Position numbers and translations under genes: made by a program
The notes under the pieces: generated by a model
What the model was told of the DNA's origin: nothing
Seen by the model: the letters and a program-made list of their open reading frames with translations, nothing else
Databases searched by the model: none
DNA from: Woeseiaceae bacterium
Lineage (GTDB): Bacteria; Pseudomonadota; Gammaproteobacteria; Steroidobacterales; Woeseiaceae
Reading direction: 5' to 3'
DNA: 64,000 nt
NCBI GenBank assembly: GCA_021773135.1
Contig: JAJFKP010000049.1
Span: 1 to 64,000, forward strand
Shown here: positions 4,879-40,142 of the stretch, in pieces
Position numbering within the stretch: position 1 is the stretch's first letter
Layout: each line of letters opens with the position of its first letter

Positions 4879-5704
4879 GACACTCCTTCCATAGCAAAGA
4901 CAAGGATTGTGTCCCCAGTCTAGCCAAGCGCGCGGAAATTGACTATGCATATCGAGAGCGCCGCATAGACGCCCACGGCCAGGCTCTTGACGATCATGCT
5001 GCGGCAGATTTGCATCCGCGGTGCGTGGCTGCCGTTGATCTTCGGCTATCTGTCGACGTTGGGCTTCAAACAGGTTGAGCAACTAGGGCTTCTGGATGCG
5101 TTCCCGGTCGCCGCCATTGTTGGCTTCACTGGCGGGCGCAGCGTGTAGATCATGGCGTCGCGGAAAGAATTATCGACCGCACCGGCGGGCCAGCGGCTCG
5201 CTTCGCCGGAACTCGTCTCTCGTAACGCCCGACGCAATCCGCACTGCATGCTAAGCATGAGCAGTAATCCGATTCGTAACCTATTCATTTCAACGAGTAA
5301 TTACTTGTTGCCTGCGTACAACTATTGGTTGCCTTCGGTATATTCACTAGAATAATTTGCAGACTGTATCCAAGTTACGATACAGTAATGAAATCGTTTT
5401 CAAGTCGAGCGAATATTAGCAACTTTAGGTTGGATTGACAGAGCTTGGGTCGTAGCGCTAGTTTGGCTGAAACACTAGAAAATCCAGTCGAACGACGTAC
5501 TCAGAACCTGGCTATTTACTAACTTAGTTGTGTAGCAGCCCGGGGGCCGTGCGGAGGAAACTATTTCGGGAGCCCCAAAGGTAAATTCGAACGACACATT
5601 TTAGCAACAGTTTCGAAGTTGCGCGTATCAGGTTATTAGCATCGCGCGAAAACGTAGACGAAGACAATGAGCCAATTAACTCAAGAAGATCGGGGGATCA
5701 TCCT
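4879..5704. other. Intergenic region upstream of the TonB receptor
   Basis: No intact gene is seen. 4935-5150 is GC-rich and may be relic coding sequence, but I could not assign it to a family. 5280-5460 is AT-rich and is the likely promoter zone of the downstream TonB receptor; a LacI-type palindrome lies at 5389-5402. Confidence 0.5.
5389..5402. promoter_or_regulatory. Candidate LacI-family operator upstream of the TonB receptor
   Basis: TGAAATCGTTTTCA is a near-perfect 14-bp palindrome with a central CG, the usual shape of a LacI/GalR operator. It matches sites at 17900, 19013 and 21667. It lies about 300 bases before the TonB receptor start, in an AT-rich stretch. The link to the LacI regulator at 19069 is inferred. 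Confidence 0.55.
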
Positions 5705-8968: not shown

Positions 8969-9371
8969 GTGCAGCCTGACCTTAAAGATCTTTCTCAGGA
9001 CCTGCGGGCCATTTATGCGGTTGCAACGCTTTAAGAAGCGGCATTGGCGCTGGACTGCTACGCGGCCAGCTGGGGTGACAAATATCCGGCGATCGGGCCA
9101 AGCTGGCCCGCCGCCCGGGACCGCGCTGTTCGACTTTCCGCCGGCGATCCGCGAAGTTATTGGTACCACCAACGCGTGTACCACCAATACCATTGAATCG
9201 CTGAGCTACTCGCTCTGCAAGGTGCTAAAGAATCGCGATGCGTTTCCGAACAACGAATCGATCAGGAATAATTTGTACCTCGCCCTGCAGAACGCCGCAA
9301 AGAAACGGAACCGGCCGATTCGCGATTGGATGGCAGCGCGCAATCAATTCGTCATATTATTCGAAGAGTGA
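8969..9371 (+). pseudogene. IS256-family transposase, C-terminal remnant
   Basis: Joined plus-strand frames give the C-terminal part of an IS256/Mutator transposase: DLKDLSQDLRAIYAVATL, a stop, EAALALDCYAASWGDKYP, a frameshift near 9120, then FDFPPAIREVIGTTNA, IESLSYSLCKVLKNRDAFPN and NRPIRDWMAARNQFVILFEE. These match the family's SW-R, PP-IR-VIYTTNAIESLN and W---LNQF landmarks. A 15-base insertion that repeats ACCACCAA interrupts the TTNAIESL motif. The last frame is open to 9371. The following bases up to about 9415 resemble the tail of the second IS256 remnant near 22200. The element cannot be active. Confidence 0.85.
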
Positions 9372-9480
9372 GTGCTGGTCTCCAATGCAGGCACACAGTT
9401 AACTTGGCACGCCCCTGAAATGGCTACTGGGAATCTGACAGACAATGGGTGTACGGATATCCCTACCAGTAACAAGAATG

Positions 9481-21521: not shown

Positions 21522-22024
21522 CTCAGTACCTCATCCGGGTCATCCCGGCTTTGCACCCTGGTGTCATCAAGCGTGACCGTAATGGCCCCGCTTGCCATCG
21601 GATAGCCAAAAAAATTCGTGCCTTTCAGCATCACCGCGAAAGACTGTTAATAATATTTCTTCGTCTTGAAAACGATTACATTACTCTATCGTACCTTGGA
21701 TCCAGTCTGCAAATTATTCTACTGAATAATTCGTAGGCAACAAATGGTCATACGCAAGTAACAAGTAATTCCTTCTGTAAATAAACAGGTCAAGAACCGG
21801 ATTAATGTTCATGCAGCGTTTCCCTTGCGGATTGCGTCGGACGCTATAAGAGACGGGTTCAGGCGACACCCGGTTCACCCGGACGCCCCCCGATCCCCTT
21901 TAGCATCAAATTGACTTTGCCGATCTGCAGGAAGCCCGTGATCTATTGCTTTTGATCGCCTCGTCTTCGTGCATCATTGATCCAGAAGGCGTCCCGCCCG
22001 CGCGGTGAAAACGTAGCTGGAGAA
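21522..22024. other. Intergenic region upstream of the FG-GAP gene
   Basis: No intact gene. It contains the operator at 21667, an AT-rich promoter-like stretch at 21640-21810, and then degenerate sequence leading into the IS256 remnant. Confidence 0.45.
21667..21680. promoter_or_regulatory. Candidate LacI-family operator before the FG-GAP gene
   Basis: TGAAAACGATTACA (reverse complement TGTAATCGTTTTCA) fits the 14-bp pattern of the sites at 5389, 17900 and 19013. It is 146 bases upstream of the minus-strand gene starting at 21521. Confidence 0.6.
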
Positions 22025-22250
22025 GAACTGGAACGCCAACTTCAGCAGAAAGATGCCAAAGAATCGCGGTGCGTTTCCGAACGAATTGTCGATCCGGAAG
22101 ATTTTATATCTCGCGTGCAGAACGCCGCGCAGAGTTGGAACCGGCCGATTTGCGATTGGCAGGCAGCGCTCAATCAATTCGTCATATTTTTCGAAGATCG
22201 GGTGCTAGACTAAAATGCAGTTACAAAGCTTACATTGACACGCTCGCCGG
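22025..22250 (+). pseudogene. Second IS256-family transposase remnant, 3' end only
   Basis: The frames carry PKNRGAFPNELSIRKILYLA and, after a frameshift, NRPICDWQAALNQFVIFFED, the extreme C-terminus of an IS256 transposase. The DNA is closely similar to 9237-9371 (for example GCGTTTCCGAAC, GGAACCGGCCGATT and CAATCAATTCGTCATATT). The tail after the stop, with AATGCAG and TTGACACG, also matches 9380-9415 and probably contains the right inverted terminus. It ends about 15 bases before the SSS symporter start. Confidence 0.8.
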
Positions 22251-23935: not shown

Positions 23936-24520
23936 CGACGCGGCCGTGACCTGACATTGAAAGCCATTATGAATTGTGCTGGCGGCACAGGCGCCGGCGT
24001 TCACCGCAGTGGTAAGTCGCATCAAAAACTATTGGTTCGACTTCGGCGGCAATCGGAAGCTGATACAAACCGCGTCACCATGCTGTGCAGCAGGATTCGT
24101 CGAGGTGGACGGTTTTCCGCACCGCAGTGTCCAGACACTCGCGGCGACAACGTAGCGTTGAGACGGCGATGCACGGTTCTCGGCAGCGCTTATCAGCGCA
24201 CAGCATGTAAACGGGCCATCAAACTTACTGATTTAAACGGCTACGATTCTTGGTCTATACGACTACGAACCAGTCGGTCGAGAGTTCGATCCGAGCAACG
24301 CATGGCGGTATCGACATACGCCGAAGACGCGCCGCAAGGGTGAATTCACGAAGTGAGCGAATCACACTCTCTGTGCGCGACCTACTGAATAGGGTACCCG
24401 ACGCGGGCCATTTTTCGTTTGCAGATGAGCGGAACGAAATCTCCGAAGGTGGTTCATCCAAGGCCGGCACTGCCGCCCGACAGTCGCGAGAACAATGTGA
24501 GCAGCTTCCTGGATTCTCTT
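23936..24520. other. Intergenic region between the symporter and the ArsR unit
   Basis: 585 bases without a recognisable gene on either strand; no strong terminator is seen after the symporter. Confidence 0.4.
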
Positions 24521-25814: not shown

Positions 25815-25836
25815 TCCGCTTCTGGCCAGAAGCGGA
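25815..25836. repeat. Short-form palindromic repeat (perfect 22 bp)
   Basis: A perfect palindrome: TCCGCTTCTGG followed by its reverse complement CCAGAAGCGGA. It is the cleanest copy of the short repeat form found between genes from here to 35.4 kb. A weaker copy follows at 25869-25892. Confidence 0.75.
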
Positions 25837-25868
25837 CATCGAATCAGATGAAAACGCCGAAAACCTAG

Positions 25869-25892
25869 GTCCGCTTTCGGCCAGGAACGGTC
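25869..25892. repeat. Short-form palindromic repeat, degenerate
   Basis: GTCCGCTTTCGGCCAGGAAC and the next bases match the short repeat with a few changes. Confidence 0.5.
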
Positions 25893-25936
25893 TGTCAGCA
25901 TCTTGTCATCGGAACCTTTGCCATCGGCTTTGATTT

Positions 25937-26323
25937 TCAGTTTCCGCCTGCCGCTTTTCTCGCAGCACCCAAGTCATACGTAACGTAAAACTCCGTTTGA
26001 TACGCACCCCAAGCACCATTCTCGATCGCCAGATTTACCCGCCGCAAATGGTCGGGTGGAAATCGCAGGACAATGACCTGACCGATACCCATCATTACGT
26101 AGTGATCGACGATTTCGACACCCTCCGGCGGAAATAGATCACCAAACCCTGACGCGTCAAGCAGGACGCGACGTTCTACATTATTCATCGACTGGTCGTG
26201 CTTGAGAAATACGGTCAATAACATCGTATCTTTGTCCGCTAATAAGGGCCCCTGGTTCTGTGCAACGCTGACGTTGCTGATCAAGACAATCATTAGACCT
26301 ACTGTAAGTAATGTTCGATTCAT
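25937..26323 (-). CDS. Small secreted protein of unknown function
   Basis: 128 residues from ATG 26323, which has GGAG about 8 bases upstream; the frame is open further but lacks a better start. A signal peptide ends near VSVAQ. The mature part (MLLTVFLKHDQSMNNVERR, HYVMMGIGQVIVLRFPPDH, GAWGAYQTEFYVTYDL) looks like a small alpha/beta ferredoxin-like fold, as in muconolactone-isomerase-like proteins. That is a guess from pattern only. It stands alone between short repeats. Confidence 0.65.
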   Translation of the reverse strand: MNRTLLTVGLMIVLISNVSVAQNQGPLLADKDTMLLTVFLKHDQSMNNVERRVLLDASGFGDLFPPEGVEIVDHYVMMGIGQVIVLRFPPDHLRRVNLAIENGAWGAYQTEFYVTYDLGAARKAAGGN

Positions 26324-26506
26324 GACCTGCTCCACGCTAATTACCATTTGCCAAATCTACTGTCCGGCGGTGATTCCATTGTAGTGCCTTGGTGACGTGA
26401 CCGGTTGCAGTTGAATATCATCATTGGGAACACCGGGAGCCGCTCAGCACGTAAGAAATTCTACCACCAGAGTGTCTGATTCCGGGGTATACCGGATACT
26501 CGGCAC

Positions 26507-27061
26507 TCAATGCCGCGAGCGGCTAGTATCGGCGATAAGCAACCGGCCGCTAATTCTGTTTCCTATTTCAGCAACCCCAGGGTCTGCATGCAATTGCCGT
26601 TGGTACTCGGCATCGTCCATGTTTCCACGGGACTCAAGAATCAGCCCATCCTCGCTCAGAGTCCATTGCTCGAAGCCTTTGAGGTCAACTGGATTCCCGG
26701 TACCGCCCGGACCCGTATTCGTGCCGGTCCAGTGCCAGTGGAACTCTACGAACTCATCAGACTGACAAACCTCGACCAATCGGATGAGCATGTCGGGGAA
26801 GGCTGACACGATGCTCCCAGCGGTTTCCGCTATCGTCTCGCGACCAACTGATCGTTCACCATCGTTAATTCGGAACGTGCGGTCTTCGGCAAAAAAAGAC
26901 GCGAATGCAACTGGGTCGCCATTGCTCCATGTGCCTGCGCAGCGGGTGGCAAATTCAGTCAAGCCGGTCCCATTAGTTGACTCGTCGGGCGACTCGCACG
27001 CCGACAACAGCATGGATGCAGCGATCATCAGTGCCAGAACATTCGCTGAGACCTTCCACAT
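26507..27061 (-). CDS. Lipoprotein with SnoaL/NTF2-like domain
   Basis: 184 residues from ATG 27061, with GGGGA upstream; an ATG 21 bases earlier is possible. The lipobox is LLSAC, so it is an outer-membrane or periplasmic lipoprotein. The mature part has the NTF2-like pattern FATRCAGTWSNGDPVAFASF, then FAEDRTFRINDG, VSAFPDMLIRLVEV, FVEFHWHWTGTN and FEQWTLSEDGLILESRG. Members of this superfamily bind or isomerise small hydrophobic ligands; no catalytic claim can be made. Its start lies 40 bases from a long-form intergenic repeat. Confidence 0.8.
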   Translation of the reverse strand: MWKVSANVLALMIAASMLLSACESPDESTNGTGLTEFATRCAGTWSNGDPVAFASFFAEDRTFRINDGERSVGRETIAETAGSIVSAFPDMLIRLVEVCQSDEFVEFHWHWTGTNTGPGGTGNPVDLKGFEQWTLSEDGLILESRGNMDDAEYQRQLHADPGVAEIGNRISGRLLIADTSRSRH

Positions 27062-27100
27062 GTGATTCCCCAAAGTTCGCATAGCTTGCTATTGTGAACG

Positions 27101-27170
27101 AACGCTTCGGGTCAGCAGCGGCCTCTAAACAGTTTGGCAGGCCAGCGGCTGGTTTCGGCGAAACGCAGCC
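27101..27170 (-). repeat. Long-form dispersed intergenic repeat, copy 1
   Basis: Read on the minus strand it has GCCGAAACCAGCCGCTGG, CCAAACTGTTTAGAGGCCGC and GACCCGAAGC. It aligns along its length with copies at 27608, 28697, 33618 and 34801. Confidence 0.7.
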
Positions 27171-27183
27171 ACGCCTGATGTCA

Positions 27184-27558
27184 CTAATTTCTCGTTGAGC
27201 GGAAATACCAAACTGCCCCACCAGCCAGAAGGAGTTGGACGAAAAATCCGATTATTAGAAGCATAGGAGCGATGAACTGCGGTTCGTAGACGGTATTGTG
27301 CCAGTCCATGCCTGCCGCCTGCATTTGTCCTCTGACGTTTAGGGCCCCTTCCGAAGTCTTGGCGTACATAATCAGGAAAAACGCTGCTGCGACACAGTAA
27401 AGCGCTGTCACTAATCTGAACAGCGTTGGACTCAATTCGTCGCCCTTGAGGTGTGCAACAACTAATAGCGCCGACGTTGCAGATAAGAATGCCACAAACA
27501 CCGTCACCGCAAAGTTCAGTAGCGTTATCCAAAGATCTAAAAGCTCGTATTCGCTCAT
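27184..27558 (-). CDS. Small membrane protein, four predicted segments
   Basis: 124 residues from ATG 27558 (MSEYELLDLW), with AGAAGA before it. Hydrophobic segments lie near residues 10-35, 45-65 and 95-120 (TLLNFAVTVFVAFLSATSAL, LVTALYCVAAAFFLIMY, FIAPMLLIIGFFVQLLLAGG). No family is recognised. It lies between two long-form repeats in the accessory region. Confidence 0.65.
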   Translation of the reverse strand: MSEYELLDLWITLLNFAVTVFVAFLSATSALLVVAHLKGDELSPTLFRLVTALYCVAAAFFLIMYAKTSEGALNVRGQMQAAGMDWHNTVYEPQFIAPMLLIIGFFVQLLLAGGAVWYFRSTRN

Positions 27559-27607
27559 TCTTCTTTTTCTGATATTTCGCTGTGACCGCAGTCTGACCAG
27601 CGAGCGC

Positions 27608-27683
27608 ATGTCCGCTTTAAATCAAGAGCGGCCTGTCGGTAGTTTAGCAAACCAGTGGCTGGTTTCGGCCAGGAGCAGCCGGT
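27608..27683 (-). repeat. Long-form dispersed intergenic repeat, copy 2
   Basis: Minus-strand reading: TGGCCGAAACCAGCCACTGG, TTTGCTAAACTACC, CAGGCCGCTCTTGA and AAAGCGGAC. Same order of blocks as the other long copies. Confidence 0.72.
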
Positions 27684-27803
27684 GATCCTCCACATGGAGC
27701 TGGTTCTTCGCGAAACTTAAAGTGAATTCTAGAAGATGTTTCCGCGGTAACGTGGGACGTCTGCTTTTACCAATACCAGCCGCTCAGCGATTCTTACTCG
27801 ATC

Positions 27804-27888
27804 TGCCGCTTTCGGCCAGAACCGGACATTAGGGCCAAACTGCATGGTCCGAATTAGCGCGGCCACAATATTCGGCCACAAGCGGTCA
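27804..27888. repeat. Two short-form palindromic repeats
   Basis: 27804-27828 contains TGCCGCTTTCGGCCAGAACC; 27871-27888 contains TTCGGCCACAAGCGGTCA, a half copy. Both follow the short form seen at 25815. Confidence 0.5.
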
Positions 27889-28263
27889 TTCACTGGCTTC
27901 TGGTCGCTCCGCAAAATGCAGCAAGACGCCTGTCGGGTCCCACACATAGGTGACAATTAAACCCCACGGCTTGAGTTCAGGTTTAGCCACTTTAGTCCCT
28001 GCAAATTTTTCGGCCAATTTAATAGAAAGAAAATGTTCGTACCACTCTTCCGCTGAATTGACCCAAAAATGAAGCATCACGCCTTGCGCGTAGTTATTGT
28101 AATTTCTGGGTGATAACAGGAAACGGTAGCCAAACTGCGTATCCACTTCGCAGACTTCATCGGTATCCCAGTTAATCTTGAAGCCCATATGTTCGTAAAA
28201 CGACTTTGACACCTCATAGTCGTTTGAGGGAACAAACGGTTTGAAGTCCAGAATTTCTCTCAT
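27886..28263 (-). CDS. VOC family protein (glyoxalase/bleomycin-resistance-like)
   Basis: 125 residues, the normal size of one VOC module pair. The strands LDFKPFVPSNDYEVSKSFYE, HMGFKINWDTDEVCEVD, GVMLHFWVNSAEEWYEHF and WGLIVTYVWDPTGVLLHFAE are typical. The protein could bind a metal or a small ligand; the substrate is unknown. No partner gene is evident. Its stop codon overlaps a short-form repeat. Confidence 0.82.
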   Translation of the reverse strand: MREILDFKPFVPSNDYEVSKSFYEHMGFKINWDTDEVCEVDTQFGYRFLLSPRNYNNYAQGVMLHFWVNSAEEWYEHFLSIKLAEKFAGTKVAKPELKPWGLIVTYVWDPTGVLLHFAERPEASE

Positions 28264-28308
28264 AACTTAGCTGCGCCTTTTCGCTGTTTGCCACTAACGA
28301 TCTTAAAC

Positions 28309-28668
28309 CTAATGCAGGTTTAGCAAGATGTAAGCAATTGCGACCAGGATGAAATAGAAAATCGTTAGCGCTATTCCGAAGGTTGATGCAAGTCGTCGTG
28401 ACCTATCCGGTCTTGGGACAGACCGCGTGATTGCCATAGAAATCATACTCAATTGTGAAACAAACATTACTGCCCGAACAATCTGTCCCTCGGCATTCCC
28501 AATTCGACTCATGTCAAACAGATAGGGAATGAAGATGTGCTGTGCAATTTCAGCAATAGGCGCCCCAATTCGCATACCGAAACTTAAGAATAGCAGGATG
28601 AAAATCCCGAAACACACTGTAATCGGATTTAGCCAAGCTGATTTTGAGAGATTGCTAAAATCGTACAT
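28309..28668 (-). CDS. Small membrane protein of unknown function
   Basis: 119 residues from ATG 28668; the frame opens at a TTG 24 bases earlier. Three hydrophobic segments are seen: PITVCFGIFILLFLSFGM, IVRAVMFVSQLSMISMAI and TFGIALTIFYFILVAIAYIL. No family is recognised. It lies just downstream of a long-form repeat, in the run of small accessory genes. Confidence 0.55.
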   Translation of the reverse strand: MYDFSNLSKSAWLNPITVCFGIFILLFLSFGMRIGAPIAEIAQHIFIPYLFDMSRIGNAEGQIVRAVMFVSQLSMISMAITRSVPRPDRSRRLASTFGIALTIFYFILVAIAYILLNLH

Positions 28669-28696
28669 TCGAGTATTCGATATGGTATCCAAAAGA

Positions 28697-28771
28697 GCGT
28701 CTGCTTTAGGTCATTAGCGGCCCCTCAGCATTTTATCACTCCAGCGGTTGGTTTCTGCCATAAGCAGACAG
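28697..28771 (-). repeat. Long-form dispersed intergenic repeat, copy 3
   Basis: Minus-strand reading: GTCTGCTTATGGCAGAAACC, AACCGCTGG, TGATAAAATGCTGAGG, GGCCGCTAATGACCTAAAGC, AGAC. Its ends GTCTGCTTA and TAAAGCAGAC are nearly perfect inverted repeats. Confidence 0.72.
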
Positions 28772-28839
28772 TTTGGCTTAATACTCCCCAGTGGCAGCTA
28801 GCGGCCGGAAGCCGCCAGTATTTGCATTGCGTAACGCGA

Positions 28840-29348
28840 TTAAGCCCAGTCTTTGTTTTCGATGAAAGCAAATAGTGCTGGCTTTTGTGCCTCGTGTTTC
28901 TCTACCTTCTCCGCCAGCCGCTGAAACCACTCCCATGGCGTTTCACGACCGAGATCCTCTCTCAATTCGCGGACATAATTATCGGCAATATTCCATGGGT
29001 GCAATATCGGATGACTAAAAAAGTCACAGTCCAGATCCATGTCTATCTGCCGACGATGCACCATAATTCCCAGACTCTCCCAGGTTGCGAAGTAAGCAAA
29101 TAGTAACGGCAAGTTATCGCCAAAACGGTCATCCAGTTGCTATCTGGACAGACCAGTGGGCACGTCAAAAGTTGACAACATCATCTTTGTAAATTCGACT
29201 GTCTGAAACGCCCTTATTAGCTCGAACGCAGCTTCTCTCTCGTCTCTTTTCTTCGAGTGTCGAAACTGGATGTTCAGCGAAACTAGTGAGGCAAGGATGC
29301 AAGGGACACCGATATTTCGGCAACAGAAGCCTGATCCGATAACATCAT
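28840..29348 (-). pseudogene. Broken DUF4760-like protein gene
   Basis: Reading the minus strand from ATG 29348 gives MMLSDQASVAEISVSLASL. The frame then shifts near 29288 and continues as VSLNIQFRHSKKRDEREAAF, ELIRAFQTVEFTKMMLSTFD and VPTGLSR. A TAG stop follows at 29142-29140, and the frame goes on as QLDDRFGDNLPLLFAYFATW through to HEAQKPALFAFIENKDWA. The reconstructed product, about 165 residues with an N-terminal membrane segment and a helical domain, resembles DUF4760 proteins. At least one frameshift and one nonsense codon break it. The last 90 codons alone would be an open frame but only with a TTG start and no ribosome site. Confidence 0.72.
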
Positions 29349-29437
29349 GTCAAATTTTCAACATTGGCTGTTTACCGCCAGATACTTACGAAGCAGACCA
29401 CTCCGGACCACCAGTGGGTATTTTCGAGTGAGTTTCA

Positions 29438-29905
29438 TTAAGCCGTTGACCCATGCATATGCGCAATTTTCCACTCACCGTCCTCCTTAATCAAAGTCAT
29501 GGAAATATATGTCTGGTAAATTGGACGCGGCGCCGCATTGCCAGGTATGACTTCGTACATTCGTTTAAAACTTACGACAGCGGCATCATTTCCATATACA
29601 CGCACAATTGGCGCTTCAATAGTGACGATGACATCCCATTTCGGATCCAATTTTTGTACTGCAGCTCGCTTCGCCAATTGAACTCGCAGGTTCTGTGCCT
29701 GATCAGCGCGGCGCCACATCTCAAATACTTGAATCCGGTCACTCGTTACCAATGCAGCCTGTGCCGTTAGGTCACTTTCTAACTCCGCCCACTTGTGCAC
29801 AACAGCGAGCACGTCGTCAGAGTCGTCCGCGACAGCGCCGAGAGGCGCAAGCAACGCAAAGAAAAAGATCGTTAGTACTCGATAGTTCTGGCTCAGATTC
29901 TGCAT
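29438..29905 (-). CDS. Secreted NTF2-like (DUF4440/SnoaL-type) protein
   Basis: 155 residues from ATG 29905 with AGGAAA upstream. A signal peptide ends near GAVADD. The mature domain has VLAVVHKWAELESDLTAQAA at its first helix, then WDVIVTIEAPIVRVYGNDAAVVSF and YISMTLIKEDGEWKIAHMHG, the typical end of DUF4440/SnoaL-like folds. Function unknown; such domains bind small molecules or act as stress-linked helper proteins. Confidence 0.82.
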   Translation of the reverse strand: MQNLSQNYRVLTIFFFALLAPLGAVADDSDDVLAVVHKWAELESDLTAQAALVTSDRIQVFEMWRRADQAQNLRVQLAKRAAVQKLDPKWDVIVTIEAPIVRVYGNDAAVVSFKRMYEVIPGNAAPRPIYQTYISMTLIKEDGEWKIAHMHGSTA

Positions 29906-29957
29906 GATAGTTTCCTATAAATAGTATTTTTGTTGATTGTTTGGAATTGGGCGTGCT

Positions 29958-29989
29958 GGCCGCTTTGCGTCATTGGCGGACAGTTTAGC
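29958..29989 (-). repeat. Partial long-form repeat (right half)
   Basis: Minus-strand reading GCTAAACTGTCCGCCAATGA, CGCAAAGCGGCC matches the right half of the long repeats. Confidence 0.5.
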
Positions 29990-30078
29990 TCAAAATCGCG
30001 TAGTGACTGCTTGCGGTCAGGTGCGGACGTTGCGCGGCTTAGAAATTGACTCTGACCCTGCATTATCTGCTTTTTCAG

Positions 30079-31119
30079 TCAGTGATGGTCATGGGTTTCG
30101 GGAGCCTCGAGTGATGGGCCTCTGCGTGGACCACCCCGCGGAGGGCCACCACCTGGCGGCCTGCCCCGTTGGTCGACAATCGCACCTGCAAAGCAAGTCA
30201 AGACGCCGTTGAGTTCCGGGGGCCGCGCGTGGTAATGGTAGCCGTAAGCGTCTGTCGAATGACCGTTGCAGGTATCCAGGTCTGCACCGGACATCGGGCT
30301 GTGGATGGTGTAACCGTCCAGGGCTAAGGCAAAAGGCGCCGTCTCGCCGTGGGGCGCGACTCCGACCTCACCGCATCCGGTTGCTGCGTGCATATGGTAG
30401 CCCTCAAACGGGTTCACGTGGCCGCCGCAGTCATCGAACGCTGCAATCGTGTAGGCACCGAGGATGGCGTCGACCGGGGCGGCAGCGTCGATCCGGACGC
30501 CGTTGAACGTTACGCCAAGCGGTGGGGCCGCGCGGGTCCCTGTGTTTCGTCGAACGGGCACCACGGGGATCCGCACGGTGGTTGTGATCGGTTCACCACC
30601 TTCGAGCCATTCCATACGTCCCTCGACGCAGTAGTTTTCGTATTCCTCCGCCACGTCGGGGCGTGCGGCCGCTTCGAAGGCTTCTTTGGTGCCAGTTACG
30701 CGCACACGGCCTTTTTCATCGTGGAGCATCCAATGATCGTCGTTGTAGATTTGGGATAAATTGAGAATGAACTGGCCTGTAATGTCGTAGAGGTTCTCAC
30801 CGTCCAGCCAGATGCCAACTTCGGCCTCCGTCGCCGCCGTGCTCCCTGGACAGAATGGGCCCACGTCGTAGTTGGCAGGCGAACCTGCCACGGTGATTTC
30901 GTAGCATGATGTGGCCGTCCCGTCGGACAGTGTGCATTCGACCGTCGTAATGTCCTGAGTCAGTGCCCCGGGCACAAATAAGTGAATCGGTATTTCTTTG
31001 CCCATGGGCTCGGGGTCAGTTTCGTCTGGAGAACTCGTGCAGCCGGCGAGAGCGACGAGACAGAGCATGGAAGCGGCTTCCAGCTTATAACTTGTTAGGA
31101 TCAGTCTTGACCATGGCAT
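30079..31119 (-). CDS. YHYH domain lipoprotein
   Basis: 346 residues from ATG 31119; an ATG at 31068 is an alternative. The lipobox is VALAGC. The C-terminal domain carries the hallmark YGYHYHAR and the histidine-rich FEGYHMHAATGCG, IHSPMSGADLDTCNGH. The last 30 residues are rich in Gly, Pro and Arg, ending in His. YHYH domains are found in secreted proteins of marine bacteria, and the histidine clusters suggest metal binding; activity is not established. No partner genes are evident. Confidence 0.82.
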   Translation of the reverse strand: MPWSRLILTSYKLEAASMLCLVALAGCTSSPDETDPEPMGKEIPIHLFVPGALTQDITTVECTLSDGTATSCYEITVAGSPANYDVGPFCPGSTAATEAEVGIWLDGENLYDITGQFILNLSQIYNDDHWMLHDEKGRVRVTGTKEAFEAAARPDVAEEYENYCVEGRMEWLEGGEPITTTVRIPVVPVRRNTGTRAAPPLGVTFNGVRIDAAAPVDAILGAYTIAAFDDCGGHVNPFEGYHMHAATGCGEVGVAPHGETAPFALALDGYTIHSPMSGADLDTCNGHSTDAYGYHYHARPPELNGVLTCFAGAIVDQRGRPPGGGPPRGGPRRGPSLEAPETHDHH

Positions 31120-31632
31120 TGAACGTTTCCAAGAACAGTGAGGTGGACTAAGGATACTGGGCAGAGGGCGCAACTACACTGCCTCCTCAATATAATTATG
31201 TGGCGGCACTGTAATCACGCAATGCGACGCATGATTGTTGTGGGATGCAAACGACCACAATGGGTCAGTAGCCGTCATTCTATCTCAAATTGCCCGGGCG
31301 ACTGCTTCCGGCCAGAAGCCGCAACTCGATCGATGCTAGTTTTCGGAAGAATGGCTTCTAAGCGCTGCAGCTTCAATTGGCGAGCGCAACACCTAATGTC
31401 TAACTATAGAGAGGCCGCTGTTGACCCTTTCTTTGCATTCATTCTGAGCGGCAGCCTGGCCCGATGTGTACCGCTCAAACGCCTGCTACAAGCAGCCGTT
31501 TACCAATCTCGATTCTTGCCGAGTTTCCGATAAACAGTTAATAAACCAATGAAAACGTGCATGTAAATAGATCGGTAACGTCGTCACAACCGCACGAATT
31601 CTTAAGGCGAAACGGCGAACTGTCACCAGAAT
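31120..31632. other. Intergenic region with repeat fragments
   Basis: No convincing gene. It holds a short-form repeat at 31300-31323 (GACTGCTTCCGGCCAGAAGC and next bases) and the right end of a long form at 31409-31430 (GAGAGGCCGCTGTTGACCC). Confidence 0.45.
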
Positions 31633-32121
31633 TTACGGCGCGTTGACCGTAGGGGCTTGCTGTGATTGTTCAATCGATTTGTACCAAACGAATGCTATCA
31701 CTACTGTCATGGTCGGATGCGCAATCAAAGATGCCCAGGTGTAGGGCACCCAGTCCATCATGAAGGCCCGGCCCATCATAGGTGCGAGAATACCTTGGGC
31801 AATGAACCAAAGAATGACCCCCCAAATTAGGCCGGCGGCAACCCACGGGAGGCGCGCCAACATTGTTCTTCGCAACAGCACGTACCCAGTTGGAAACACG
31901 ATAGCGCCGACGCACAAGTGAAGCACATAGGCGGTTGTGTAACTCACTTGGACACCCGTGAAGGTCTTGATGAGGCCGATGACCAGATTAGCGGGTTCCA
32001 TTTGAAAGCCAAACAATACAGGTGCAAGCAAAAGGCCGAAAGACTCAAATACAATTTCCGCTGTTACCCCTGCTATCAGAAGAACGGCTATTAGTGGCAG
32101 TGGCTCAGAGAAGGTGTTCAT
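31633..32121 (-). CDS. Membrane protein, four predicted segments
   Basis: 162 residues from ATG 32121 with AAAGGA upstream. Hydrophobic segments: PLPLIAVLLIAGVTAEIVFE, YVLHLCVGAIVFPTGYVLL, LPWVAAGLIWGVILWFIAQG and SLIAHPTMTVVIAFVWY. No family is recognised. It follows the AhpD-like gene by 56 bases on the same strand and probably shares its promoter, opposite the TetR gene. Confidence 0.72.
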   Translation of the reverse strand: MNTFSEPLPLIAVLLIAGVTAEIVFESFGLLLAPVLFGFQMEPANLVIGLIKTFTGVQVSYTTAYVLHLCVGAIVFPTGYVLLRRTMLARLPWVAAGLIWGVILWFIAQGILAPMMGRAFMMDWVPYTWASLIAHPTMTVVIAFVWYKSIEQSQQAPTVNAP

Positions 32122-32177
32122 TTTTTTGTCCTTTCGTTGGATCCTGGTCACGTCGTTCTCGCCGAAGAAGACGTGCT

Positions 32178-32732
32178 CTACGCCGCCTTTTGCCAATCGA
32201 ACTTCCGGGCAGGAGCATCGATCGGCGTGTTGGCCAGGTGGTTCGTGTAATTCGACATCACTTTCTGAGAGACGCCAAGGATGACTTCCAGAATCTGACG
32301 TTTTGTGAATCCCGCATTCAGGAATGCCTGCACCGCGCTGTCGTCAACGTTGCCGCGATCACGAACGACCCTCAGCGTAAACGTGCGCAGGGCTTCTAAC
32401 CGGCTGTTGGGCAGCGGCGTTTCATTGCGCAACGCATCCGAGATGTCGTCGCCAACGCCCATGCTCTTCGCAATGAGAGTATGACCGGGAACGCAGTAAT
32501 GGCAGTTGTGTTCCACATTAGCCGTCTGCCAGACGACGGTGAGTTCGTCCTTGTCAAAGCTGGAGTTCGCAAATAGCTCATGGGCTGTCTTGTACGCTTC
32601 AAGAAGAGCGGGTGCCTCAGCCATGACCGCATGGAGGCCTGGAGTCCTTCCGAACGATTTCTTCGAGTCGGCGAGCAGCGGTTTGCTGGCGTCTGGGGCG
32701 GTGTTTTCGGTGTGCAAGGTGAATTCAGTCAT
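32178..32732 (-). CDS. AhpD-like/carboxymuconolactone decarboxylase family protein
   Basis: 184 residues. The core has the redox motif EHNCHYCVPGH (C77, C80, H84), typical of alkylhydroperoxidase D-like proteins, and the later helix AFLNAGFTKRQILEVILGVSQ. Members reduce peroxides or act in related thiol chemistry as cytoplasmic oligomers. A good GGAAACG site precedes the ATG. It is divergent from a TetR regulator, and both promoters contain a similar 20-bp element, so it is probably repressed by that regulator. Confidence 0.88.
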   Translation of the reverse strand: MTEFTLHTENTAPDASKPLLADSKKSFGRTPGLHAVMAEAPALLEAYKTAHELFANSSFDKDELTVVWQTANVEHNCHYCVPGHTLIAKSMGVGDDISDALRNETPLPNSRLEALRTFTLRVVRDRGNVDDSAVQAFLNAGFTKRQILEVILGVSQKVMSNYTNHLANTPIDAPARKFDWQKAA

Positions 32733-32760
32733 GATCGTTTCCTTTTAGAGTCAATAGGGT

Positions 32761-32803
32761 TTGTACCGATTGGTTTAGACTAATCGGTTTAAACTGATCA
32801 GTC
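32761..32803. promoter_or_regulatory. Operator-like elements before the AhpD-like gene
   Basis: TTGTACCGATTGGTTTAGAC (32761-32780) differs at only three positions from the element at 32932 before the TetR gene. Overlapping it, 32778-32803 is a 26-bp palindrome centred on GTTTAAAC with outer arms GACTAATC and GATCAGTC (two mismatched pairs). Confidence 0.6.
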
Positions 32804-32931
32804 AAAACCTTTCTCAAGAATCGGGCGAATTGAGCCTTGGGAGACTGCCAGAAACGGCCAGAATAGCAGGTTTTCTGCAGGTTTGTTGGTTTGGCGGGCT
32901 TCTATCGATCACGCGAATGGTCTACATCAGT

Positions 32932-32951
32932 TTGTATCGAATGGTATAGAC
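32932..32951. promoter_or_regulatory. Operator and promoter of the TetR gene
   Basis: TTGTATCGAATGGTATAGAC matches 32761-32780 closely. TTGTAT (32932) and TATAAA (32956) have an 18-base spacing and could be the -35 and -10 boxes, so the element lies inside the promoter. Confidence 0.58.
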
Positions 32952-32993
32952 ATGCTATAAAGAGACCACACTGGAACTAGAGAAAGGATGGCA

Positions 32994-33572
32994 ATGCCCT
33001 GGGAAAAGTCATTTGATGAAGAAGCCGCGCTTGAGAAGGCCATGCTGGTGTTTTGGGAAAAGGGCTTCGAGCCTGCGTCTATCGCAGACCTGATCGAGGG
33101 AACGGGGATCAACCGTGGCAGTCTTTACAACGCCTTTGGCGGTAAACAGAAATTGTTCGTCAAAGCTCTGAAGAAGTACGATCGGTATCGTCAGGATACG
33201 TTGGCCCGATTGGAAGCATTGGACGATCCGAAAAAGGCAATCACTGCGCTTTTCGATGACGTGGTCACCAAGGCCGTGACTGATCAGGATCGCAAGGGCT
33301 GCTTCTTGTTCAATACCGCGTTGGAGATCGGCAGCCACGATAAAGAAGTAAAAGAGATCGTTAGCAATGGCGTTAGAGAGAATGAAGCCTTTTTCCGACG
33401 TAGTATCGAGGTGGGGCAAGCCCGAGGTGTTTTTCGTAAGGATCTTGATCCTGGGGCCACGGCTAAAACTCTATTGGCCTTGATCGTCGGTATTCGTGTT
33501 CTCGGCCGCGGCGTGTTTACAGAGGCGGCCCTGCGGACGATTGCCAACGAGGCGAAGCGACTAATTGCATGA
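32994..33572 (+). CDS. TetR/AcrR family transcriptional regulator
   Basis: 192 residues if started at ATG 32994, which has AAAGGA 6 bases upstream; an ATG two codons earlier overlaps that site. The N-terminal helix-turn-helix reads ALEKAMLVFWEKGFEPASIA, DLIEGTGINRGSLYNAFGGK. The rest is a helical ligand domain with the RKGCFLFNTALEIG segment common in the subgroup that controls redox or oxidoreductase genes. It is divergent from the AhpD-like operon and shares an operator-like 20-mer with it. Confidence 0.92.
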   Translation: MPWEKSFDEEAALEKAMLVFWEKGFEPASIADLIEGTGINRGSLYNAFGGKQKLFVKALKKYDRYRQDTLARLEALDDPKKAITALFDDVVTKAVTDQDRKGCFLFNTALEIGSHDKEVKEIVSNGVRENEAFFRRSIEVGQARGVFRKDLDPGATAKTLLALIVGIRVLGRGVFTEAALRTIANEAKRLIA

Positions 33573-33617
33573 CATTCGAGTAGCAAGAAATGATTGTGCG
33601 ACAGAAGTTGCCAGTGG

Positions 33618-33682
33618 CAAGTTTTGGCCGAAACCAGCCCTTGGGCTGATAAACTGGTGAGAGGCCGCTTTTGACCGGATGG
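33618..33682 (+). repeat. Long-form dispersed intergenic repeat, copy 4
   Basis: Plus strand: TTTTGGCCGAAACCAGCCC, TTGGGCTGATAAACTGGTGA, GAGGCCGCTTTTGACCGGAT. Same block order as the copies at 27101, 27608, 28697 and 34801. Confidence 0.73.
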
Positions 33683-33967
33683 TCTTGCCTGGTTTTATTG
33701 GGCACCTGAGTTAAGTCCAAAGGTCCGGTTTTCGAAGCGGACAGGACTGATATTTCCGTCGTAAACATGCCGGCGTTCTCGGTTTTAGAAGCGTTAGATG
33801 TAATCGAACACATCGCTGCACCGCTTTCTTCGGGTCATCGTGCACCTCCGTAGGCCAAGTTAGACCTAAATGCAGGTGTTCACTAAACCTGAGCAAGACC
33901 ACAAAGCAGCCATTCGAGCTAGTCGTGCAATTGAACCGTTATCGCGTATTGAAAGGGAGACCACTCG

Positions 33968-34768
33968 ATGTCGACAACAGATGAAATGGGACTCACCGCC
34001 GAGGCGGCGAACGGCTATGAAGAGTTCTTCGTTCCAGCGATTTTCGACCAATGGCCTCCGACCATGGTTGCTGCTGCGGCGGTCAGCAAAGGCGACGACG
34101 TCTTGGACGTAGGGTGCGGAACCGGTGTATTGACACGTGCGTTAGTGCAGCACGTAGGAGACGGCGGTAGCGCAACCGGTTTCGATCTTAGTGAGAGCAT
34201 GTTAGGCGTAGCGCGAAACCGCTGCCCTGACGCGACCTTCAAGCAAGGAAACGTCATTCAACTTCCGTTTGACGATCAGAGTTTTGATGCGGTGATTAGC
34301 TCTTTCATGCTGATGTTCGTGTCTGATCCAGAAAGAGCTCTCAGCGAAATGCAGCGCGTTCTCAGGCCCGGCGGTCGCTTGGTTATTAGTGTTTGGCAAG
34401 GACTGGAAAACAACGTCGTTTATCGCGACTTGGTCGAGGCGACTCGCGAGGTTGCCGGTGATGATTCAGCAGACTCGATGGCATGGCCGTTTACGATGGG
34501 CCAAGCGGGCAGATTGGAAGGCATCTTCAAGTCTGTCGGCATGAGAGGCGTCGCCATAAGTGAACATGACGGAACTGCAACTTTTCCCTCGGTCGAGGAC
34601 TTCGTGGCGACAGAGATTCAAGCATGGCTGTTGGCGGATAGCGTTGACGTAGATCAGATCAATGCGATGGTGAAATTGTTGCGAACCAAGTATCCGCCGT
34701 TCGAGAAAGTCACCGGCGAGGTTAGCTTCCCTCTCAATGCGCTTGTAGGCAAAGCGATTACAGTTTAG
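33968..34768 (+). CDS. Class I SAM-dependent methyltransferase
   Basis: 266 residues. Motif I is VLDVGCGTG (residues 45-53), followed by ATGFDLSESMLGVAR (motif II region), IQLPFDDQSFDAVISSFMLM and MQRVLRPGGRLVISVW. This is the UbiE/Methyltransf_11 pattern. A GGGAGA site lies upstream. The acceptor substrate is unknown. It stands between two long-form repeats in the accessory region and has no clear operon partner. Confidence 0.88.
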   Translation: MSTTDEMGLTAEAANGYEEFFVPAIFDQWPPTMVAAAAVSKGDDVLDVGCGTGVLTRALVQHVGDGGSATGFDLSESMLGVARNRCPDATFKQGNVIQLPFDDQSFDAVISSFMLMFVSDPERALSEMQRVLRPGGRLVISVWQGLENNVVYRDLVEATREVAGDDSADSMAWPFTMGQAGRLEGIFKSVGMRGVAISEHDGTATFPSVEDFVATEIQAWLLADSVDVDQINAMVKLLRTKYPPFEKVTGEVSFPLNALVGKAITV

Positions 34769-34800
34769 TAATCGCAGCTCTTCAGGTGCTCTCTTGGCGA

Positions 34801-34869
34801 CCGCTTGTGGCCGATGCCAGCCGCTGGGCTGCTAAACTACTGAGAGGCCGCTATTGACTTGAAGCGGCC
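34801..34869 (+). repeat. Long-form dispersed intergenic repeat, copy 5
   Basis: Plus strand: CCGCTTGTGGCCGATGCCAG, CCGCTGGGCTGCTAAACTAC, TGAGAGGCCGCTATTGACTT, GAAGCGGCC. The ends CCGCTT and AAGCGG are inverted. Confidence 0.73.
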
Positions 34870-34918
34870 AATTGGCTTATCAGCACTACAGGACGAAGGT
34901 AAGGTAGGCTTCTTGGTC

Positions 34919-35308
34919 ATGCTCAGCAAACATATCGTCGCAACAGCGCTCGTGATCGTCGGGGTTATCCATTTGTTGCCGCTGTCCGGTGTTACGGGAA
35001 GCGCGCGACTTGCCACCTTGTATGGGATCCCATTCGATGAACCGAACTTGGCAATTCTCATGCGTCATCGCGCCATTCTTTTCGGTCTACTTGGGCTCTT
35101 CCTGATTTATGCGGCGTTTAGACCATCGCTGCAAGTCCTGGCTTTTTTCGCTGGGTTTGCCAGTGTCACCTCTTTCCTTTGGCTGGCGTACAGCACGGGA
35201 CAATACAACAAGCAGGTCGCCACGGTTTTTGTGGCCGACGTAATTGCGCTCGCTTGCCTGATCATCGGTGCTATTGCCTGCTTTATACGACGCACTACGA
35301 CAGAATAG
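34919..35308 (+). CDS. Small membrane protein, four predicted segments
   Basis: 129 residues from ATG 34919; the open frame begins at 34859 inside a repeat. Hydrophobic segments cover most of it: HIVATALVIVGVIHLLPL, HRAILFGLLGLFLIYAAF, LQVLAFFAGFASVTSFLWLA and VFVADVIALACLIIGAIACF. The RHRAILFGLLG pattern is shared by conserved proteobacterial membrane proteins of unknown function. No Shine-Dalgarno is clear. Confidence 0.72.
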   Translation: MLSKHIVATALVIVGVIHLLPLSGVTGSARLATLYGIPFDEPNLAILMRHRAILFGLLGLFLIYAAFRPSLQVLAFFAGFASVTSFLWLAYSTGQYNKQVATVFVADVIALACLIIGAIACFIRRTTTE

Positions 35309-35619
35309 TTCGCTATTGGCCGAAAGCAGACCACAACTTTTCCCGGTTTCTCTAAACCTGAATGGCCGCTTTCGGGAAGAGCGGTCCTGCAGATCTTCCG
35401 ACGAACTATTTGTAATCAGTACGTCCGCGGTTCGGTGGAACCGTGCCGTCTCCGGCGCTCGCCCTCGTGCTGCTCGGATCGCTACGCGTTCGCCTTATCA
35501 TGCGCAGCTAGTCCTACTTGATTTCAATTATCGATAGTACATGGTTGGCTGACTCCCAAATTCTGGAAAAAGCGGCGCAGCAGGGCTCCGCCGTGCAGCC
35601 GGTTGTTCGGACGCGGTCC
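35309..35619. other. Intergenic region with two short-form repeats
   Basis: No gene. 35309-35332 (TTCGCTATTGGCCGAAAGC and next bases) and 35364-35387 (GGCCGCTTTCGGGAAGAGC and next bases) are short-form repeats. Confidence 0.5.
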
Positions 35620-39504: not shown

Positions 39505-40142
39505 GTGGCTACTGTTGAATTACTTGTGGTGAATTAATGGAGGACACAAAGGATTAAACCAAGCATGCAAGATTCCAGGAAATCGAACACAAAGAGCACC
39601 TATCGCGGCCACAGTGTTAATCTGCTGTTCAAAGCTAATTTGGTCGACTTATTAGCCAGTCTAGCCCGCTCAACCACCCAAAAAGGTGATGAAAATCAAG
39701 TTTCAATCAAAAACCATCGCATGCAAAGAGCAACTTGTATCGACGAGCAAATAGAGGTCGGATTGCAGTTCCTGCTGGAAACACGGTTCGACCCCTATTT
39801 CCCGGCGGGCCGCTTTGGTCAGGAAGAAAAGTTGGGAAAGTCACTCCAACTAATGGCCGTATATGGCCGAAACCAGCCGCCTATAAATGCTCGATTCGAC
39901 CAATCTTTGCGTTTGCTCTTGGGAATAGGGGACACTCGATCGCCTCAGCCGTGGGCAGGGCTCGGCAACCGTGGTGCAGCAAGATTTCAGGAAAGCATTG
40001 CAGGTTGCTGATTGGGGCCTCGACCCGCAGAGTTGACCTCCAATGTCCTGATACAGTCGGAATTGGCGGTGACAGGATGATTTCGAAGCACCGTAGGTAG
40101 CTCATCCGAGCCCGACTTCGTCGGCCCACGGGCGCACGCTTG
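39505..40142. other. Intergenic region between the secreted protein and the aminotransferase
   Basis: 638 bases. Open frames here show no family features. A fragment at 39854-39890 (ATGGCCGTATATGGCCGAAA, CCAGCCGCC) matches the left half of the long repeat. Confidence 0.4.

What the first reader, a model, noticed from the sequence alone, without database searches (positions are those of the whole stretch)
25815..35387. Dispersed palindromic repeat family in long and short forms
At least five long copies (27101, 27608, 28697, 33618, 34801; both orientations) share the block order TGGCCGAAACCAGCC, GCTGG, TAAACT, GAGGCCGCT, TTGACC and ends CCGCTT/AAGCGG. At least six short copies are simple palindromes such as TCCGCTTCTGG plus its complement. 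The short form looks like the left end of the long form joined to the inverted right end. All are between genes, and all but one partial copy (39854) fall in 25.8-35.4 kb, the accessory stretch full of small proteins and a broken gene. They could be non-autonomous mobile elements, recombination sites that collect gene cassettes, or RNA-processing hairpins.
Basis: partly seen in the sequence, partly recalled or inferred. Interest (0 to 1): 0.66.

Follow-up and report, generated by a model that had tools for sequence, protein, structure and literature searches.

The report
Integron-like gene cassette arrays without IntI
The repeats are 79-bp recombination sites that divide this bacterium's genome into long rows of interchangeable one-gene cassettes, as in the integrons that spread antibiotic resistance, but with different sites and, most likely, a different, very small recombinase.

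Summary
The repeat family is real and much larger than the window: at least 89 copies on 11 contigs of this genome, and matches in 90 of 107 genomes of its family. A copy is a 79-bp imperfect dyad: palindromic half H1, a spacer of about 24 nt, and inverted half H2. Most 'short copies' are H1 or H2 of divergent elements. In array contigs, same-orientation elements separate single genes: 9 orientation flips in 195 neighbours; longest ORF on the element's strand in 163 of 181 intervals; median spacing 621 bp. One cassette is 95% identical between two genera, with homology confined between two elements. The sharpest junctions fall inside the H1 core, TGGCCGAAA. This marks a site-specific recombination platform. 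IntI and attC core motifs are absent. The likely enzyme is a 208-aa tyrosine recombinase lying in an array between two divergent elements; relatives of 65-71% identity across beta- and gammaproteobacteria are also flanked by divergent half-sites. A complete genome of another family has similar arrays with single ~30-bp palindromic sites beside the same recombinase. No earlier description found in the papers held. Recombination itself is inferred.

The parts
   Evidence: CM R1 E 5.5e-8
25937..26347 (-). cassette gene; the cassette region 25878-26400 is 89% identical to C55:5733-6255, homology ending inside the H1 core
26507..27082 (-). cassette gene, SnoaL-like; homologous cassette in contig C5 (78% identity)
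27096..27174 (-). 79-nt element
   Evidence: E 7.5e-21
27184..27609 (-). cassette gene, small membrane protein (weak DUF3995 match, below Pfam cut-off)
27606..27684 (-). 79-nt element
   Evidence: E 3.5e-21
27685..27754 (-). core of a ~147-bp cassette with no obvious gene; three more copies in the genome at 90-91% identity
   Evidence: C55:9013-9223, C55:13253-13426, C47:150534-150708
27755..27831 (-). variant element
   Evidence: E 4.7e-6
27886..28263 (-). cassette gene, glyoxalase/VOC family
28309..28692 (-). cassette gene, small protein without Pfam match
28695..28773 (-). 79-nt element
   Evidence: E 6.8e-23
28840..29112 (-). C-terminal fragment of a DUF4760 protein (the 'broken gene')
   Evidence: profile positions 78-140 of 141 only
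29438..29905 (-). cassette gene, SnoaL_3/CaMKII_AD fold
29954..30032 (-). 79-nt element, subtype with ATTTTGAGCTAAACTGTC spacer
   Evidence: E 1.6e-10
30079..31173 (-). cassette gene, YHYH protein
31249..31327 (-). 79-nt element; last '-' copy before array orientation flips
   Evidence: E 4.6e-15
31402..31426 (+). right half of a decayed '+' element, back to back with the previous one
   Evidence: family D9
33612..33690 (+). 79-nt element whose H2 is interrupted by an IS3-type remnant; the right arm resumes at about 33897
   Evidence: E 6.9e-19
33968..34768 (+). cassette gene, class I SAM methyltransferase
34795..34873 (+). 79-nt element
   Evidence: E 1e-22
34859..35308 (+). cassette gene, small membrane protein (start codon approximate)
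35304..35390 (+). decayed element at the end of the array
   Evidence: E 0.5; by eye
39851..39937 (+). isolated decayed element
   Evidence: E 0.06

Best explanation
The repeats are the recombination sites of an integron-like gene-cassette system. A cassette runs from the H1 core of one element to the H1 core of the next: right half of H1, spacer, H2, one gene, left half of the next H1. Site-specific strand exchange inside the H1 core (TGGCCGAAA, columns about 13-22) would excise a cassette as a circle or insert a circle at another site, leaving arrays of same-orientation cassettes. The probable enzyme is a 208-aa tyrosine recombinase, a catalytic domain without the usual N-terminal core-binding domain. 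Its gene sits between two divergent variant elements, so arrays extend outward on both sides. Shown from sequence: array structure, gene orientation, one single-cassette transfer between genera, junctions at H1 in the informative pairs, and linkage of recombinase and sites. Inferred: that recombination is catalytic, that this enzyme does it, and that a circle is the intermediate. The window holds one array of about ten elements; no recombinase was found in it.
For: Arrays: 195 neighbouring element pairs 150-2500 bp apart give 9 orientation flips; 163 of 181 intervals carry the longest ORF on the element's strand; median spacing 621 bp, median ORF 172 aa; median 24 nt from stop codon to element and 32 nt from element to next start. 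Mobility: C5:5341-6000 is 95% identical to G006:C68:5303-5963 in another genus, the only long match between the two stretches, ending in the flanking elements. Junctions: a pair with 100% identical downstream flank is identical from column 19 onward; a pair with similar upstream flank is identical up to column 22. Enzyme: 20 of 107 family genomes hold it, several as fragments; catalytic R59, K87, H156, R159, H182, Y191 invariant; divergent elements flank it; genomes with a close copy hold a median of 36.5 elements against 5 (p about 1e-4, uncorrected for relatedness). In other beta- and gammaproteobacteria half-sites next to it are always divergent: 23 right '+', 24 left '-', none opposed. Complete genome G150 (another family) has recombinases 63-65% identical beside arrays of single-gene cassettes with ~30-bp palindromic sites.
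Against: No excised circle, in vivo rearrangement or biochemical activity was observed. Several rather complete genomes (G082, G097, G027, G037) carry 17-47 elements but only XerC/XerD-like tyrosine recombinases, so arrays either outlive the enzyme, as CALINs do for integrons, or another enzyme works. Two near-identical pairs differ inside the left arm of H1, so the crossover is not sharp in every case. Averaged over all pairs, many of them diverged, the junction signal is weak. In most other proteobacteria the half-sites beyond the immediate flanks show no outward bias (43 vs 47).
Confidence: 0.75

Rival explanations
1. The arrays are true integrons with divergent attC sites, driven by an undetected IntI.
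For: Cassette logic, single genes, orientation and site length (79 nt) resemble attC arrays; the single strand can fold with outer and inner stems (L014:8887-8965).
Against: No IntI over the cut-off in the genome; its best matches are the XerC/D-like genes, as in all 14 control genomes. RYYYAAC and GTTRRRY are absent from the ends of all 52 elements. The dyad arms do not covary above shuffles. In G150 the site is a ~30-bp palindrome without room for R and L boxes plus a terminal loop.
Confidence: 0.07
2. XerC/XerD, not the 208-aa enzyme, recombine these sites, as proposed for pdif modules; the small recombinase is itself only a passenger cassette.
For: Genomes with elements but only XerC/XerD-like enzymes exist. 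The recombinase gene is spaced from its flanking elements like a cassette gene.
Against: The sites show no resemblance to the dif consensus as I know it. The 208-aa gene is flanked by divergent half-sites in many genera, and genomes that hold it have more elements.
Confidence: 0.12
3. The elements are REP/BIME-like or MITE-like repeats that landed between genes; array structure is a by-product.
For: Palindromic, intergenic, many copies; in Pseudomonas loci many half-sites lie as lone hairpins.
Against: Head-to-tail order with genes on the same strand and homology that spans gene plus site and ends in the H1 core are not expected from repeats that insert alone. RAYT genes were not searched for.
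Confidence: 0.05
4. Conserved RNA hairpins (terminators or processing sites) at gene 3' ends, with breakpoints from ordinary homologous recombination between repeats.
For: Elements lie a median of 24 nt after stop codons, in gene orientation.
Against: No covariation above shuffles; no Rfam family; near-identical junctions cluster in the H1 core although similarity runs through all 79 bp.
Confidence: 0.03

Closest known systems
Sedentary chromosomal integrons (IntI + attI + attC cassette arrays)
   Same: Arrays of one-gene cassettes, gene and site in the same orientation, a tyrosine recombinase gene in an array, site clusters without a recombinase (CALIN-like), exchange of single cassettes between lineages.
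   Different: Recombinase is a 208-aa catalytic domain, not IntI; sites lack the attC core motifs and are dyads of two palindromic halves or a single ~30-bp palindrome; arrays extend outward on both sides of the recombinase.
FimB/FimE-type small tyrosine recombinases
   Same: About 200 aa, catalytic domain only (one search matches NF007371 and NF007370 weakly).
   Different: Those invert one promoter segment; here many sites and cassettes, and scores far below the family cut-offs.
pdif modules (XerC/XerD sites around mobile genes)
   Same: Short sites flanking exchangeable genes.
   Different: No dif resemblance seen; here a dedicated recombinase is linked to the sites.
GInts / Pseudomonas 'integron-like elements' (PMC5385486, PMC4542609)
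   Same: Tyrosine-recombinase-driven movement of accessory genes in proteobacteria.
   Different: GInts carry the ginABCD operon with three integrases and multi-gene cargo, and integrate as one island; no cassette arrays.
REP/BIME elements with RAYT
   Same: Intergenic palindromes in many copies, paired inverted halves.
   Different: Not tied to cassette boundaries or cassette exchange.

Membership tests
Integron | IntI-type integrase (TIGR02249 over cut-off) | tested here: not met
   No match over 265 bits in the genome; the array recombinase scores 27.5 bits over positions 233-297 only
Integron | attC sites bounded by RYYYAAC and GTTRRRY | tested here: not met
   0 of 52 elements at either end
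Integron | Conserved folded single-strand structure of the site | tested here: inconclusive
   Dyad pairs 75% of cells but covariation equals shuffles; IntegronFinder's attC model is not on hand
Integron | Array of single-gene cassettes with consistent orientation | tested here: met
   9 flips of 195; 163 of 181 ORFs on the same strand
Integron | attI site next to the integrase gene | tested here: inconclusive
   Variant elements with altered H1 flank the recombinase on both sides; function untested
Integron | Exchange of single cassettes with junctions at the site | tested here: met
   inferred from comparison of genomes, not from an experiment
pdif / Xer modules | dif-like XerC and XerD half-sites | tested here: inconclusive
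   Judged by eye only; no model search was run
REP/RAYT | Y1 HUH transposase (RAYT) in the genome and a GTAG/GGAG tetranucleotide 5' of the hairpin | not tested
GInt | ginABCD operon with three integrases | tested here: not met
   The own genome has four tyrosine recombinases in all, each on a different contig, so no three lie in one operon in the assembly held
Tyrosine recombinase | Catalytic residues R, K, H-x-x-R, H, Y | tested here: met
   Invariant in A3; PF00589 E 3e-21

The most novel reading that the evidence does not exclude
A second, independently evolved class of integron: a compact tyrosine recombinase of about 200 aa, annotated only as 'tyrosine-type recombinase', moves gene cassettes between double-stranded palindromic sites in many beta- and gammaproteobacteria and has built large, two-sided cassette arrays in at least two gammaproteobacterial families, unseen by integron-finding software because neither enzyme nor site matches its models.
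Probability: 0.55. Interest if true: 0.93.

Novelty: new variant of a known kind. Interest (0 to 1): 0.85.

Why it matters
Integrons are taken as the one bacterial system that stockpiles and shuffles single-gene cassettes. A parallel system with another enzyme and simpler, apparently double-stranded sites would show that this strategy arose more than once, would uncover a large cassette pool that present tools miss (89 sites in this genome; 90 of 107 genomes of the family), and would offer a very small recombinase with short palindromic sites. The recombinase is also on plasmids, including Pseudomonas aeruginosa megaplasmids, so whether it moves cassettes there is worth knowing.

Tried and rejected
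Rfam search of the region: nothing. IntI model: only the XerC/D background. Recombinase remnant in the window where orientation flips (31.3 kb): none. Reading the 'short form' as a deletion derivative of the long form: rejected, they are half-sites or divergent elements. A 1-kb insertion in G030 and G005 relative to window 33.8 kb first looked like a cassette insertion; it is a full-length IS3-type element of which the window keeps an internally deleted remnant. Outward bias of distal half-sites around the recombinase outside the family: not found (43 vs 47), so arrays are not general there; one Variovorax locus does show an array. Shared cassettes inside G150: only the recombinase unit and the H-spacer-H element recur. 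Synteny around the window in the genus: one 92% match that stops at 23968, not informative on the array. Literature searches found GInts, SEs and ordinary integrons only.
Full report
WHAT WAS CHECKED. A simple pattern from the H1 half, GGCCGAAACCAGCC with up to one mismatch, occurs 42 times in the 4.55-Mb genome against 3 for the reversed control. The window is part of contig C44 of a 64-contig assembly, 99.7% complete.

ANATOMY OF THE ELEMENT. Fifty-two copies align over exactly 79 columns without gaps. The consensus is GAnCGnCTGCTTCTGGCCGAAACCAGCCGCTGGnCTGCTAAACTGnTGAGAGGCTGCTATTGACCCAAAGCGGACnTTC. Columns i and 80-i are complementary along most of the length, so the element is a full-length imperfect dyad; each half (H1, columns about 5-28; H2, columns about 52-75) is itself a rough palindrome. 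The arms pair in 75% of cells, but covariation equals that of shuffles. That fits a double-stranded dyad, or arms brought together by recombination, better than a conserved RNA.

DISTRIBUTION. In the family, 90 of 107 genomes and 10 of 12 genera match; a genus of 1.1-2.0-Mb genomes has none. In 369 genomes drawn from the class, which include this genome and one family member (G099), eight others match at 1e-6, strongly in G333 and G117; G150 gives weaker hits to the 79-nt model but proves informative below. The taxon is unnamed in the tools; I suspect Woeseiaceae from genome sizes and one complete 4.1-Mb member, but did not test it.

ARRAYS. Contigs C5, C55 and C60 read as integron-like arrays: element, small gene, element, small gene. 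Over the family loci fetched, 195 neighbouring pairs show 9 orientation flips, and 163 of 181 same-orientation intervals have their longest ORF on the element's strand; median spacing 621 bp, median ORF 172 aa. Elements start a median of 24 nt after a stop codon and end 32 nt before the next ORF. Window cassettes encode SnoaL-like, glyoxalase, YHYH, methyltransferase and small membrane proteins, the sort of content known from integron cassettes (my knowledge).

MOBILITY AND JUNCTIONS. C5:5341-6000 matches G006:C68:5303-5963, in another genus, at 95% over 661 bp. It is the only long match between the two stretches, and both ends lie in elements. At the 3' end the left arm of H1 differs, so there the break could be up to about 20 bp before the core. 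Other pairs place the break more sharply: L016:6850 and L015:159 are identical from column 19 on and beyond but differ to the left; window 27684 and L015:9087 are identical up to column 22 and diverge to the right. Window 25878-26400 versus C55:5733-6255 (89%) ends inside CTGGCCG. A cassette of about 147 bp without an obvious gene exists four times in the genome at 90-91%. Averaged over all 23 upstream-similar and 29 downstream-similar pairs the contrast is small, because many pairs are old and their similarity does not reach the element.

THE ENZYME. The genome has four tyrosine recombinases on four contigs: two have the length and strength of XerC/XerD, one is a 374-aa protein far from any element, and one is a 208-aa protein in the C60 array (L016:925-1551). 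The last has an intact set of catalytic residues and aligns to the catalytic domains of XerA, XerD and XerH in the PDB. Full or partial copies occur in 20 of 107 family genomes. In the close clade it lies between two variant elements, '-' upstream and '+' downstream, and the elements beyond continue in the same outward directions. Genomes with a close copy hold a median of 36.5 elements (search-capped counts) versus 5 without (p about 1e-4, not corrected for phylogeny). Relatives with 65-71% identity occur in Pseudomonas, Burkholderia-group, Massilia, Halomonas, methylotrophs and others. There, stringent half-sites next to the gene are always divergent: 23 on the right '+', 24 on the left '-', none opposed. 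A looser motif is present on both sides in 40 of 81 loci and in 16% of control windows per strand.

AN INDEPENDENT ARRAY. G150, a 2.4-Mb single-contig genome of another family, has two such recombinases (63-65% identity). Next to one (L259:10388-10975) lie seven '+' sites of the form AATGACCGCTTTTGCGCCGAAAGCGGAC, spaced 256-600 bp, the last abutting the gene, and further on nine strict (ten by the repeat finder) '-' sites; small ORFs follow the site orientation in nearly all intervals. The second locus (L260) shows the same plan with six sites. So a single palindrome, resembling H1, can serve as cassette boundary, and the H1-spacer-H2 form may be an elaboration.

HOW IT PROBABLY WORKS. A tyrosine recombinase bound to the two arms of an H1 palindrome exchanges strands in the central TGGCCG-type core. 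Two H1 sites in direct orientation release a circle with one gene and one complete element; the reverse reaction inserts it at another site. The variant elements beside the recombinase could be entry sites. The catalytic steps are inferred. The main open problem is that several genomes with many elements keep only XerC/XerD-like recombinases. I read these as arrays that outlived the enzyme, as CALINs do (PMC9024848), but XerC/XerD activity is not excluded.

KNOWN OR NEW. It works like an integron but fails two defining tests, IntI and attC core motifs, so it is not filed as one. GInts (PMC5385486) and the tyrosine-recombinase classification of PMC8138268 describe other systems. Searches of the held papers gave no description of this one; subscription papers and preprints are not held. 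I therefore rate it a new variant of the cassette-platform kind, with the stronger reading stated separately.

Noticed in passing
window 33680-33901: Internally deleted IS3-type element (terminal repeats 33680-33715 / 33866-33901) inserted inside H2 of element 33612. Longer copies in L221 (G030) and L039 (G005) sit at the same relative position, between TGACCC and the AAAGCGGAC-type right arm, which suggests an insertion sequence that targets this site.
   Followed up: partly
window 27684-27831; G000 C55:9013-9223, C55:13253-13426, C47:150534-150708: A cassette of about 147 bp without an obvious gene present four times in the genome at 90-91% identity.
   Followed up: partly
G000 C60 right end (L016:6850-7008) and C55 left end (L015:1-159); C24 left end and C42 right end: Contigs end inside repeated cassette starts, so the assembly breaks in arrays and the true arrays are probably longer.
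   Followed up: no
family genus g10 (G012-G020): Genomes of 1.1-2.0 Mb in this family have no element at all, while most relatives do.
   Followed up: no
L133:567-600, L101:7387-7424: Pseudomonas genomes contain lone or paired palindromes of the same type (GACTGCTTTCGGCCAGAAGCGGAC) away from the recombinase and without a clear array.
   Followed up: no
window 23968; L223 (G029:C118): Synteny with a 92%-identical relative stops at 23968, and that relative carries two tandem homologues of window 20.0-21.8 kb.
   Followed up: no
window 5203-5418 / 21651-21866 (inverted) and 9219-9412 / 22050-22243 (direct): Diverged duplicated segments, 79-80% identical, probably paralogous coding regions.
   Followed up: no
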